Shown in pieces: positions 20,969-23,457 of a DNA stretch of 45,564 nucleotides. This stretch comes from a virus. The translations under genes were made by a program, and so were the position numbers. Positions within the stretch are counted from its first letter, which is position 1, and every line of letters begins with the position of its first letter. The DNA is taken from positions 1 through 45,564 of IMG/VR virus record IMGVR_UViG_3300047457_000631, one strand, 5' to 3'. The notes beneath the pieces were generated by a model, which saw only the letters and a list, made by a program, of their open reading frames with translations, ran no database searches and was not told the DNA's origin.

Positions 20969-21382
20969 TTAACTTGCTATTCTTATACTAGTAGCAGATT
21001 TTAATTGGTTTAATCTTTCTGAAGACACACCATTAAGTAATTCCTGCTCAGTTAATTCAAACCAAGTTTCAATAGATTCCATACCATCGTACTCGTCGAT
21101 ATAATACTCACAACCATCAGGTATTGAAGTAATTACTAATTCTGCACAACGACCATTAGCTTTTTTGCCTAAGTCTCTGACTACTTGTATGATTACAGGA
21201 TCAGTACGAGGTATATGATGATCAGAAAATTGATCATTGCCTTCTATCATATAATATTTAAAATGACTAGAAGAACACTTTGGATTGAGTCTAAATTCAA
21301 TATTTTTCTTTATAAGATACAATCTTACTGCTTCGTTAGATAATCCATATCCACCATAGCATCTGTTAATTAAAATTTCCAT
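20969..21382 (-). CDS. conserved phage hypothetical protein
   Basis: A protein of 137 residues. The start (MEILINRCYGGYGLSNEAVR) and the later pattern DPVIIQVVRDLGKKANGRCAE then YYIDEYDGMESIE resemble a family of small phage proteins that begin 'I-x-R-C-Y-G-G-F-x-L-S-x-x-A' and end 'I-D-E-Y-D-G-x-E'. No activity is known to me for that family. The conserved Cys-Tyr-Gly-Gly and Asp-Glu-Tyr-Asp segments suggest a ligand or metal site. Confidence 0.7.
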   Translation of the reverse strand: MEILINRCYGGYGLSNEAVRLYLIKKNIEFRLNPKCSSSHFKYYMIEGNDQFSDHHIPRTDPVIIQVVRDLGKKANGRCAELVITSIPDGCEYYIDEYDGMESIETWFELTEQELLNGVSSERLNQLKSATSIRIAS

Positions 21383-21408
21383 TTATTTTAGGTTTAAAGG
21401 TTTAATAA

Positions 21409-21681
21409 CTAATAGCTCTTTGGGTCTCCTGCCTTTGCTTCATGGTAGGCAGAACCACAATTGAGACCCTCAAGCATACATAATCCCTCTGCACTCAGTT
21501 TATAGGACTCTCTTGTTCCGTGTGTATGGCATACGTTCCATATAATCACATACGTCTTGTTTTCATCATCAAGACTTATAAACTGCTCACCCTTGGGAAG
21601 TGAGTTGTGGTGCATTAATATTTGAAAGGCTGAGTGTTGACCTTTCATGTTATGATTGTAACTGCTTTCGCTGTAACACAC
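21409..21681 (-). CDS. hypothetical protein, His/Cys-rich (GTG start or internal ATG)
   Basis: A protein of 90 residues if it starts with GTG at 21681, or 79 from the ATG at 21648 (MKGQHSAFQILMHH). It contains TYVIIWNVCHTHGTRESYKL and several His/Cys that could bind metal. The base composition is richer in GC than the genes to the left. The GTG has AGG nine bases upstream, but the segment before the internal ATG may belong to the structured RNA next door, so the shorter form is as likely. Confidence 0.55.
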   Translation of the reverse strand: MCYSESSYNHNMKGQHSAFQILMHHNSLPKGEQFISLDDENKTYVIIWNVCHTHGTRESYKLSAEGLCMLEGLNCGSAYHEAKAGDPKSY

Positions 21682-22602
21682 ACACCTATATTTCTACAGG
21701 TACATAACATGCTCAACAGATAAAGTTCTGTCTGACTTCTACACAGCAATTTATAAGTTCCTTTTCGTACCTACTTCCTTGCGGGATTCACAAGATGCCT
21801 CCTGTTAGTGGGATACTACTCATTTCCTTCATAGTCGGCCTTGCGAGCGTTCTATGTCTGCATATTTCAGCAGAATAAGAGCATTTTCATTACTGTGTGC
21901 GTGGACGTTTTTGCTTAGATTATTAGTTTTAATAATAATTTTTAGCGGTCCAGGAAGATGAAAGAAGTAGTCCAAGCTTTTAGTAACATGCTATCTTTTG
22001 GATAGTTTAGTTACGACTCCTCTCTGTTTTCAGCGGCCAAGCGTACTTACTGCTCTCTAATGTATTCCACGATATTTCTATCAGCAGATATTAGATTACT
22101 GATAACAGCTTCGATCTTGGCGAGATCTACTACCGTTATCTATTGTGTAGTCTATTGATATTTCTATCTCAAACTCCTGCCTGTCAGAAGTTCTAACTCT
22201 CTAAGCGTCAACCGTTAGGCCACTAGCTCACCAAGAGTCAGGTTACACAATACCTTTCAGTGGACAGGAATCTTCCTGCGCAATATGCTTACCGAGCATA
22301 TTACTTTATACCATCACTGGTTTATCCTTTGGTCACGAAGGCTGACCTGTTGTTTCGGTAGTTAGTCTAGCTAACTTAACGCATACACCATGAGTATTTC
22401 AACTCTGAGGGTAACAACATTGTATGCTTTTATGGTTACGTTCTCACCGTAACCGTATCCCCCATTCTATCCAACTCAGAAACATATAATGTTTCGCAAT
22501 AGACCCAGGGATTCTCATTATGTACTGTGTTGAGATCACGCCAGCAACTTACTGGATAGACACTCGGTTAAAGGAAGAGTGCCGATACTAAATTAAATGA
22601 TA
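21682..22602 (-). ncRNA. candidate large structured non-coding RNA F (~920 nt)
   Basis: There is no open frame of 60 codons or more on either strand over 921 bases, while GC is visibly above the genome average. Perfect short-range stems are dense: GGTTACG/CGTAACC (22434-22454), AATATGCT/AGCATATT (22282-22302), GCATACA/TGTATGC (22381-22427), AGTTAG/CTAACT (22360-22376), GGTCA/TGACC (22331-22347), CAGGA/TCCTG (22265-22278), GATAAC/GTTATC around GATCT/AGATC (22101-22140), GTAAC/GTTAC around CTATC/GATAG (21983-22014), and TCTGC/GCAGA near 21860. GNRA-type GCAA loops (CC-GCAA-GG) read only on the minus strand. The size is in the class of GOLLD and ROOL RNAs, but I cannot assign it to either. Confidence 0.55.
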
Positions 22603-22857
22603 TTAACGAAAGTTATTCCATGGTGTCCACGATGTAACTTGGTCTTTTGAAGGGTCAAATTTCTCGAAAGAAACATTAGGACCTTGGTATGTTCTCTTGT
22701 TGAAATACTTCATCATAAACTTAGCATACCACATTGGTGTTGCGTGTATTCTATAACCTTTAAAAAGATATTTAATCTTAATGGTTAACATACACAAACT
22801 GCTTTCAGTACGAATCCATTCATAGTTACCTCTGTAATCTGATACTATTATTCTCAT
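22603..22857 (-). CDS. hypothetical basic protein
   Basis: A protein of 84 residues from the ATG at 22857 (MRIIVSDYRGNYEWIRTESS). An upstream in-frame start would add a hydrophobic 8-residue piece with no site to support it. It is basic and aromatic (YFNKRTYQGPNVSFEKFDPS). It lies between two large structured ORF-free blocks. Its ATG falls within a 7-bp inverted repeat (CATGGTT 22855-22861 / AACCATG 22935-22941) that could fold the leader over the start codon. Confidence 0.55.
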   Translation of the reverse strand: MRIIVSDYRGNYEWIRTESSLCMLTIKIKYLFKGYRIHATPMWYAKFMMKYFNKRTYQGPNVSFEKFDPSKDQVTSWTPWNNFR

Positions 22858-22881
22858 GGTTTTAAGTATTAAGTAAAACAA

Positions 22882-23249
22882 AATTGATTGTAATAACTAC
22901 TACAATTTGTACTCTCACAAGGTTGCAACCCTTGAACCATGTACCAGATTAGGCTCTAGAGAATTATACATTACCTGCAATTGGATGAGAGTAATTAAAA
23001 CTACTATGTCAAGGTTCCCATCCTTGCTCAGCATGCCTGCGTCTCCTGGGCGTCGGAACACAGTAGTTTTAACATTTAGCCATACTATTATTAATAGGTG
23101 GCTAATCACGCATAGCTATGCGTTAGGGTTACGAGTCCATGAGAGGATAGTAACCACTCCAGAAAGAATGATATTTGTGTCCATCTGTCTGATAATTAGG
23201 TAGTTAAAGGGAATTTATTCGGCACTCTCGCAGCCCTCTCGCTAAAGAT
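22882..23249 (-). ncRNA. candidate structured non-coding RNA G (~350 nt)
   Basis: Open frames here (98 codons on plus, 64 on minus) run through strong inverted repeats and look spurious. Stems: TTAAAACTACT/AGTAGTTTTAA, 11 bp (22995-23005 with 23062-23072), enclosing CAAGG/CCTTG; TAGCC/GGCTA around CTAT/ATAG (23077-23104); the palindrome CGCATAGCTATGCG flanked by CTAA/TTAG (23102-23125); GGTTAC/GTAACC (23127-23155); CAAGG/CCTTG at 22918-22934. No tRNA can be folded with a proper anticodon arm. The strand is assumed from the neighbours. Confidence 0.45.
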
Positions 23250-23399
23250 TTAGTTAAACTTTAGTAGTATTATTGATGCAAGCATACTTGTCATACATAT
23301 TACTGCGCCCCATACATCACCTGCTACTATTGTAGCTAGAGTTAGAGGCATTAACAATATCATACATGAGATTGTTAAGAAGTTTGTGAACTGTTTCAT
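23250..23399 (-). CDS. 49-residue membrane protein
   Basis: A two-TM peptide (MKQFTNFLTISCMILLMPLT, then DVWGAVICMTSMLASIILL). It has a clean ATG, and a CTAAAG/CTTTAG inverted repeat overlaps its stop. It belongs with the other tiny membrane proteins of this region. Confidence 0.55.
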   Translation of the reverse strand: MKQFTNFLTISCMILLMPLTLATIVAGDVWGAVICMTSMLASIILLKFN

Positions 23400-23423
23400 G
23401 ATGGTTTGTATTAATAGTTTCCG

Positions 23424-23457
23424 TTAAAAGGGAAGAGGGAGCACCGCTCCCCCCTCC
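23424..23457 (-). terminator. GC-rich intrinsic terminator after 23464-23784 gene
   Basis: The minus strand has GGGAGC-GGT-GCTCCC, extended by further G/C pairs, then CTTTTAA, directly after the stop of the GC-rich gene. Confidence 0.65.

What the first reader, a model, noticed from the sequence alone, without database searches (positions are those of the whole stretch)
21682..22602. ~920-nt ORF-free, hairpin-dense block: candidate giant structured RNA
Every other kilobase of this genome is packed with genes, yet 921 bases carry no frame of 60 codons on either strand. At least ten perfect short-range stems of 5-8 bp are packed along it, some nested (GATAAC around GATCT; GTAAC around CTATC), and GC is above the surrounding level. 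GNRA-type loops read on the minus strand, matching gene direction. Large ornate RNAs of this size (GOLLD, ROOL) are known from phages and prophages and form cage-like multimers, but I cannot match this sequence to them. It may be a new class.
Basis: partly seen in the sequence, partly recalled or inferred. Interest (0 to 1): 0.8.

Follow-up and report, generated by a model that had tools for sequence, protein, structure and literature searches.

The report
Divergent GOLLD RNA in crAss-like phage
The gene-free block is a highly divergent copy of GOLLD, a giant phage RNA known to assemble into hollow cages, here in an uncultured crAss-like phage and packed among other unnamed structured RNAs and, in relatives, self-cutting ribozymes.

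Summary
21682-22602 has no ORF of 60 codons, GC is about 0.40, and it folds better than shuffles. Rfam's GOLLD model matches 22024->21627 end to end (108 bits, E=8e-29). That is below the curators' 150-bit cut-off, so routine annotation misses it. The full RNA is about 965 nt (22592->21627).

I found GOLLD relatives in about 20 other IMG/VR contigs; those large enough to classify carry a crAss-like terminase. On 14 sequences Rfam's structure is 90.5% paired, with compensatory changes in 50 of 81 pairs. Extra long-range helices covary too, including two contacts seen in the published GOLLD cage (L22-J17/22, L27-J24/26). A 14-mer RNA cage is therefore the best mechanism, though this molecule was not tested.

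The surroundings are the new part. GOLLD sits in an RNA array with two unnamed, widespread, covarying modules (A and B) that frame variable inserts. The slot just 3' of GOLLD holds B, A or a Pistol ribozyme in different phages. All five Pistols found lie 5-280 nt after a GOLLD. The "ORF" 21409-21681 is module B, not a gene.

The parts
21627..22592 (-). GOLLD RNA, whole element (about 965 nt; 5' end inferred, 3' end from the Rfam model)
   Evidence: Rfam match for the 3' domain; 5' part aligned and covarying among relatives; bounded by the stop codon of the gene at 22603 and by element B, whose first conserved base is 12 nt downstream
21627..22024 (-). GOLLD conserved 3' domain, full Rfam model 1-416
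   Evidence: RF02032, 108.3 bits, E=8.4e-29; structure tested on 14 sequences
22025..22432 (-). GOLLD 5' domain, conserved core in the crAss-like group, with motif GGATAAACCAGTRATGGTATAAA at 22305-22327
   Evidence: alignment A2; 62 of 90 predicted pairs with compensatory changes
22433..22592 (-). GOLLD 5'-most segment, modular: exchanged between relatives
   Evidence: alignment
21970..21977 (-). 5' strand of an 8-bp long-range pseudoknot helix (partner 21899-21906) that brackets the variable linker
   Evidence: 8 of 8 pairs with compensatory changes
21879..21884 (-). 5' strand of a 6-bp long-range helix (partner 21709-21714)
   Evidence: 98.8% paired, 3 pairs with compensatory changes
21678..21681 (-). 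J24/26-type strand pairing with L27-type loop at 21634-21637
   Evidence: 96.4% paired, covarying; matches the contact described in PMC12286853
21907..21959 (-). linker region of the 3' domain (no insert here; holds a tRNA-Asn in L310 and a tRNA-Pro in L061)
   Evidence: alignment, tRNAs
21482..21615 (-). Element B: structured RNA module 12 nt 3' of GOLLD (outer stem, hairpin with invariant loop UUCCCAAGG, long arm CAGUUUAUA/UAUAAACUG around a variable insert, tail AGGGA)
   Evidence: 145 copies collected, strong covariation; more than 120 viral contigs; not in Rfam
22911..22992 (-). Element A: structured RNA module upstream (outer stem ACUCUCA/UGAGAGU, hairpin CAAGG-GUUGCAA-CCUUG, variable insert)
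   Evidence: not in Rfam
22603..22857 (-). small protein gene (84 aa) between element A and GOLLD; its C-terminus is shared with the gene upstream of GOLLD in L303
   Evidence: sequence; no Pfam match
22997..23070 (-). hairpin element D (AAAACUACUGUG...CAUAGUAGUUUU), directly 5' of element A
   Evidence: sequence; analogous variable hairpins precede A in relatives
23116..23184 (-). element C: 22-codon ORF (...GVVT..W..NPNA*) with a hairpin over its stop codon, repeated in relatives
   Evidence: sequence comparison

Best explanation
The block encodes a GOLLD RNA of about 965 nt, transcribed leftward with the early-side genes of a crAss-like phage. Shown: it has the complete GOLLD 3' domain; its helices and several known tertiary contacts are kept by compensatory change in relatives; it lies between other structured RNA modules; and in some relatives a Pistol self-cleaving ribozyme sits 5-6 nt after its 3' end. 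Inferred: it is cut out of a long transcript (by Pistol in some phages, perhaps by elements A/B or host RNases in others), folds into separate 5' cap and 3' ring domains, and assembles into a 14-copy hollow RNA cage like GOLLD env-38. What the cage holds or does is unknown; a role in infection, such as sequestering a host or phage component during lysis, is the most likely reading.
For: Full-length RF02032 match, E=8.4e-29. Fourteen of 19 contigs found with a 5'-domain motif alone also carry the GOLLD 3' domain, so the two domains travel together. Rfam's structure, an independent source, on 14 aligned 3' domains: 90.5% of cells paired against 76.1% shuffled, 50 of 81 pairs with two-sided changes, covariation score 0.515 against 0.229 shuffled and at most 0.124 when slid. 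Three long-range helices outside Rfam's nested structure: 96.8% paired, 13 of 18 pairs compensated. L22-J17/22 complementarity changes in step: AGT/ACT, GGT/ACC, TGT/ACA, GAT/ATC. G-U pairs far outnumber A-C mismatches on this strand (150 against 9), as expected for RNA read from the minus strand. The linker of relative L310 holds a tRNA, a feature reported for GOLLD (PMC12286853). All five Pistol ribozymes found in 48 crAss-like records lie 5-280 nt 3' of a GOLLD on the same strand. The cage, its contacts, and the rise of GOLLD expression during lysis are from PMC12286853.
Against: The score is under Rfam's curated cut-off of 150 bits. The 5' domain could not be compared with that of env-38, so the cap of the cage is not verified. 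The L21a-type loop does not keep a palindromic GC/CG in all members (GACA loops in L306, L309, L062), so bridge B8 may differ. GOLLD is sporadic: of the terminase relatives searched, only L034 has it, plus a partial copy in L021, so it is not essential to the phage group. No RNA data exist here.
Confidence: 0.87

Rival explanations
1. It is a new class of giant RNA, distinct from GOLLD and ROOL.
For: Below Rfam's gathering score; default Rfam search finds nothing; no blastn relative among 50,697 phage records.
Against: Match over the whole GOLLD model at E=8e-29 with loops such as CUCGCAAGG and the CUCAGCCU end; two tertiary contacts described for the GOLLD cage are kept by covariation.
Confidence: 0.04
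2. It is a decayed or frameshifted protein gene that happens to fold.
For: ORF-free stretches can be pseudogenes.
Against: Compensatory base changes throughout, G-U over A-C asymmetry 150:9; no relative shows a longer frame in the block.
Confidence: 0.01
3. It is a GOLLD homologue that no longer assembles: a monomeric RNA scaffold or a non-functional remnant.
For: Divergent score; some loops known as intermolecular bridges vary; sporadic presence.
Against: 75 of 81 Rfam pairs are intact in the window itself and tertiary contacts are conserved; a remnant would lose these.
Confidence: 0.08

Closest known systems
GOLLD RNA (RF02032; env-38 cryo-EM structure, PMC12286853)
   Same: Whole 3' domain, variable linker between its first hairpin and the long multibranched part, L22-J17/22 and L27-J24/26 contacts, size above 800 nt, phage-encoded, tRNA in the linker of some members.
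   Different: Scores below the Rfam cut-off; own 5' domain group with motif GGATAAACCAGTRATGGTATAAA and an exchangeable 5'-most segment; in crAss-like phages; followed by element B, element A or a Pistol ribozyme; few tRNAs nearby.
ROOL RNA
   Same: Large phage RNA forming a hollow multimer (PMC12286853), near tRNA islands.
   Different: No ROOL match in the window at any tested threshold.
Pistol and Hatchet self-cleaving ribozymes (RF02679, RF02678)
   Same: Found in the same RNA arrays of related phages; Pistol takes the slot that element B takes here.
   Different: Elements A and B do not match either family in the window; cleavage by A or B is untested.

Membership tests
GOLLD | Match to the Rfam covariance model over its whole length | tested here: met
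   model 1-416, E=8.4e-29, but 108 bits against a gathering score of 150
GOLLD | Score over Rfam's curated gathering cut-off | tested here: not met
   108.3 against 150 bits; every crAss-like relative is also under it. This is a curation threshold, not a structural feature
GOLLD | Secondary structure of the 3' domain kept by covariation | tested here: met
   90.5% paired, 50 of 81 pairs with two-sided changes
GOLLD | Tertiary contacts L22-J17/22 and L27-J24/26 | tested here: met
   helix 3 and loop/linker pairs; assignment to the published labels is by position
GOLLD | Self-kissing L21a loop with palindromic centre (bridge B8) | tested here: inconclusive
   GC centre in most, GACA loops in L306, L068, L309 and L062; hairpin equivalence uncertain
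GOLLD | 5' domain forming the cage cap | not testable with these tools
   Rfam models only the 3' domain; a covarying 5' domain is present but was not compared with env-38
GOLLD | Assembles into a 14-mer cage | not testable with these tools
   needs biochemistry
GOLLD | Phage-borne, near tRNA islands | tested here: inconclusive
   phage: yes; no tRNA in the window, tRNAs near GOLLD in L310, L062, L243 and others
ROOL | Match to the Rfam ROOL model | tested here: not met
Pistol or Hatchet ribozyme (for elements A and B) | Match to the Rfam model | tested here: not met

The most novel reading that the evidence does not exclude
Elements A and B, which flank GOLLD, are two undescribed RNA families of environmental crAss-like phages. 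They are constant frames (outer stem, hairpin with an invariant loop, and in B a loop-tail pseudoknot) built around exchangeable structured inserts, and they act as self-cleaving or processing units: in different phages the slot just 3' of GOLLD is filled by B, by A or by a Pistol ribozyme. The array would then be a self-processing RNA locus that releases a cage RNA and a library of plug-in RNAs.
Probability: 0.3. Interest if true: 0.88.

Novelty: new member of a known kind. Interest (0 to 1): 0.58.

Why it matters
It extends GOLLD to crAss-like phages, a very abundant phage order, in a divergent form that standard annotation thresholds miss. The Pistol ribozyme placed 5-6 nt after GOLLD gives a direct, testable clue to how this RNA's 3' end is made. 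The RNA array around it contains two widespread unnamed RNA modules whose function can be tested cheaply in vitro. GOLLD's function is an open question, and a phage group in which close relatives have and lack it is a natural comparison.

Tried and rejected
blastn of 21350-23450 against INPHARED phages: no match. Rfam at gathering threshold: no match anywhere in the window, which would have wrongly suggested a new class.

A GOLLD pattern built from the Rfam consensus found only one unrelated GOLLD, in a ten-tRNA array (L061). Searching terminase relatives for GOLLD gave just one full hit, so relatives were sought by the 5' motif instead.

Elements A and B: no blastn match in named phages; element A not in GTDB genome contigs, so no host could be read off. 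Six named crAss-like phages carry neither GOLLD nor B.

I considered that the frame 21409-21681 is a protein. It is element B: relatives keep the stems, not the frame. I considered A and B as tRNA remnants or terminators; neither fits the covariation or the variable inserts. Literature searches found no paper in the held library linking GOLLD with crAss-like phages or with Pistol/Hatchet.

Full report
OBSERVATION. The block 21682-22602 contains no ORF of 60 codons, has GC about 0.40 against 0.25-0.35 to the left, and its minus strand folds better than shuffled sequence (z -3.46; plus strand -2.07). Lack of ORFs alone is not unusual for random sequence of this make-up (53.5% of shuffles), so the claim rests on the structure evidence below.

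IDENTITY. At default thresholds Rfam finds nothing in the window. With E-value reporting, GOLLD (RF02032) matches 22024->21627 on the minus strand over model positions 1-416, 108.3 bits, E=8.4e-29, below the curated cut-off of 150. The alignment shows the long first hairpin with its CAAAA loop, the variable linker, the CUCGCAAGG hairpin and the CUCAGCCU end.

PHAGE. The terminase (phrog_6681), portal and major head protein and 34.6% identity of the terminase to Cellulophaga phage phi14:2 (Crassvirales) make this a fragment of a crAss-like phage. Fifty-eight IMG/VR relatives were fetched; the longest are 79-92 kb. GOLLD lies in the leftward genes, about 4.5 kb from the divergent terminase operon. 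Among the relatives only L034 has it at the same place, with a partial copy in L021 at a contig end.

RELATIVES OF THE RNA. A motif shared by the 5' halves (GGATAAACCAGTRATGGTATAAA) found 19 contigs; 14 of these also have a GOLLD 3' domain by Rfam, all below the cut-off. A home-made model of the last 120 nt (R1) found further copies in contigs chosen only for elements A or B: L098, L107, L284, L243, L211, L242, L250 and L264. Of 49 records with GOLLD, A or B, 42 carry the crAss-like terminase family; the seven without it are shorter contigs of 8-64 kb.

COVARIATION. Rfam's structure was projected on 14 aligned 3' domains: 90.5% of cells paired (76.1% shuffled), 50 of 81 pairs with changes on both sides, score 0.515 (0.229 shuffled, at most 0.124 slid). 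Three long-range helices that are not in Rfam's nested structure were found by scanning the same alignment, so they are selected, but they survive the same controls: 21970-21977 with 21899-21906, 21879-21884 with 21709-21714, and 21678-21681 with 21634-21637 (96.8% paired, 13 of 18 pairs compensated, coordinates). The last, and the L22 loop pairing with the strand before its stem, correspond by position to the L27-J24/26 and L22-J17/22 contacts of the env-38 cage (PMC12286853). The 5' domain also covaries (62 of 90 predicted pairs). G-U pairs outnumber A-C mismatches 150 to 9, which fixes the RNA strand as minus.

BORDERS. Upstream the RNA starts just after the stop codon at 22603 of an 84-aa gene; downstream it ends at 21627 and element B begins 12 nt later. 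The 5'-most 160 nt are exchanged between relatives.

THE ARRAY AROUND IT. Element B (21615->21482): AUGCA-CCA - hairpin with invariant loop UUCCCAAGG - arm CAGUUGUAA/UUACAACUG around an insert of 6-395 nt - AG - UGCAG - AGGG. In 145 copies (119 distinct frames) the hairpin stem appears as CUCAC/GUGAG, CCUGA/UCAGG, UCUAC/GUAGA, CUAUC/GAUAG and more; two-sided changes number 218 against 41 in shuffles. A loop-tail pseudoknot (UCCC with GGGA) is supported by UCAC with GUGA in L306 and L307 (these two are related, so this is one or two events). Element A (22992->22911): ACUCUCA/UGAGAGU outer stem, UCCAA(UU)GCAGG, insert, CAAGG-RUUGCAA-CCUUG. Both scans hit the 120-contig limit. A precedes B on the same strand in nearly all contigs with both. 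The inserts fall into many unrelated groups (48 among 108 A inserts, 103 among 142 B inserts), and several groups recur in different phages with conserved structure.

RIBOZYMES. Rfam finds Pistol and Hatchet in these arrays. In 48 crAss-like records, five have a Pistol, and each lies 5-6 nt (three) or about 280 nt (two) 3' of a GOLLD. In the others the slot within about 20 nt of the GOLLD end holds element B in about ten contigs, element A in L107, or other sequence. Hatchet lies roughly 600-900 nt upstream of A or GOLLD on the same strand in most cases. The slot exchange suggests, but does not show, that A and B are processing elements like Pistol. Counts are small and some contigs are close relatives.

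MECHANISM. Shown: sequence, structure conservation, position. Inferred: processing from a long transcript, folding into cap and ring domains, 14-mer cage. Published GOLLD data (cage at 3.0 A, expression rising at lysis) come from PMC12286853. Cargo and benefit are unknown for all GOLLDs.

NOVELTY. Member of GOLLD by structure; new in being a sub-threshold group of crAss-like phages with its own 5' part and ribozyme- or module-flanked 3' end. I found no earlier link of GOLLD to crAss-like phages in the held library, which is incomplete.

Noticed in passing
21482-21615 (-), and 145 copies in L loci: Element B, an unnamed covarying RNA frame with invariant loop UUCCCAAGG and a variable structured insert; in more than 120 IMG/VR contigs, not in Rfam. 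The ORF 21409-21681 is an artefact of it.
   Followed up: yes
22911-22992 (-), and about 110 distinct copies in L loci: Element A, a second unnamed RNA frame (CUCUCAUCCAAGCAGG ... CAAGGRUUGCAACCUUGUGAGAG) with variable inserts, almost always 5' of element B on the same strand.
   Followed up: yes
L299 1905-1966, L298 1160-1221, L300 2180-2241, L313, L315: Pistol ribozymes lie 5-280 nt 3' of GOLLD in all five crAss-like records in which Pistol was found.
   Followed up: yes
L316-L320, L163, L121: Hatchet ribozymes about 600-900 nt upstream of element A or GOLLD on the same strand.
   Followed up: partly
Inserts of A and B (for example L060, L146, L160 for A; L154, L212, window for B): Groups of structured inserts recur in different phages inside the same constant frame, as if plugged in.
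   Followed up: partly
23116-23184 (-), L010, L012, L013, L037, L049: Tiny conserved ORF ending NPNA*/ENA* with a hairpin over the stop codon, followed by a second hairpin AAGCCAUA...UAUGGCUUAAU.
   Followed up: no
L310 1854-1929 (-): tRNA-Asn (anticodon ATT) inside the GOLLD linker of a crAss-like phage whose terminase reads through three TAG codons (G062), suggesting TAG recoding.
   Followed up: partly
22603-22857 (-): Small protein whose C-terminus (GPNVSFE...NNFR) matches the gene directly upstream of GOLLD in L303; possible linked protein.
   Followed up: no
L061: A high-scoring GOLLD (202 bits) of another phage lies in an array of ten tRNAs with tRNA-Pro in its linker.
   Followed up: no
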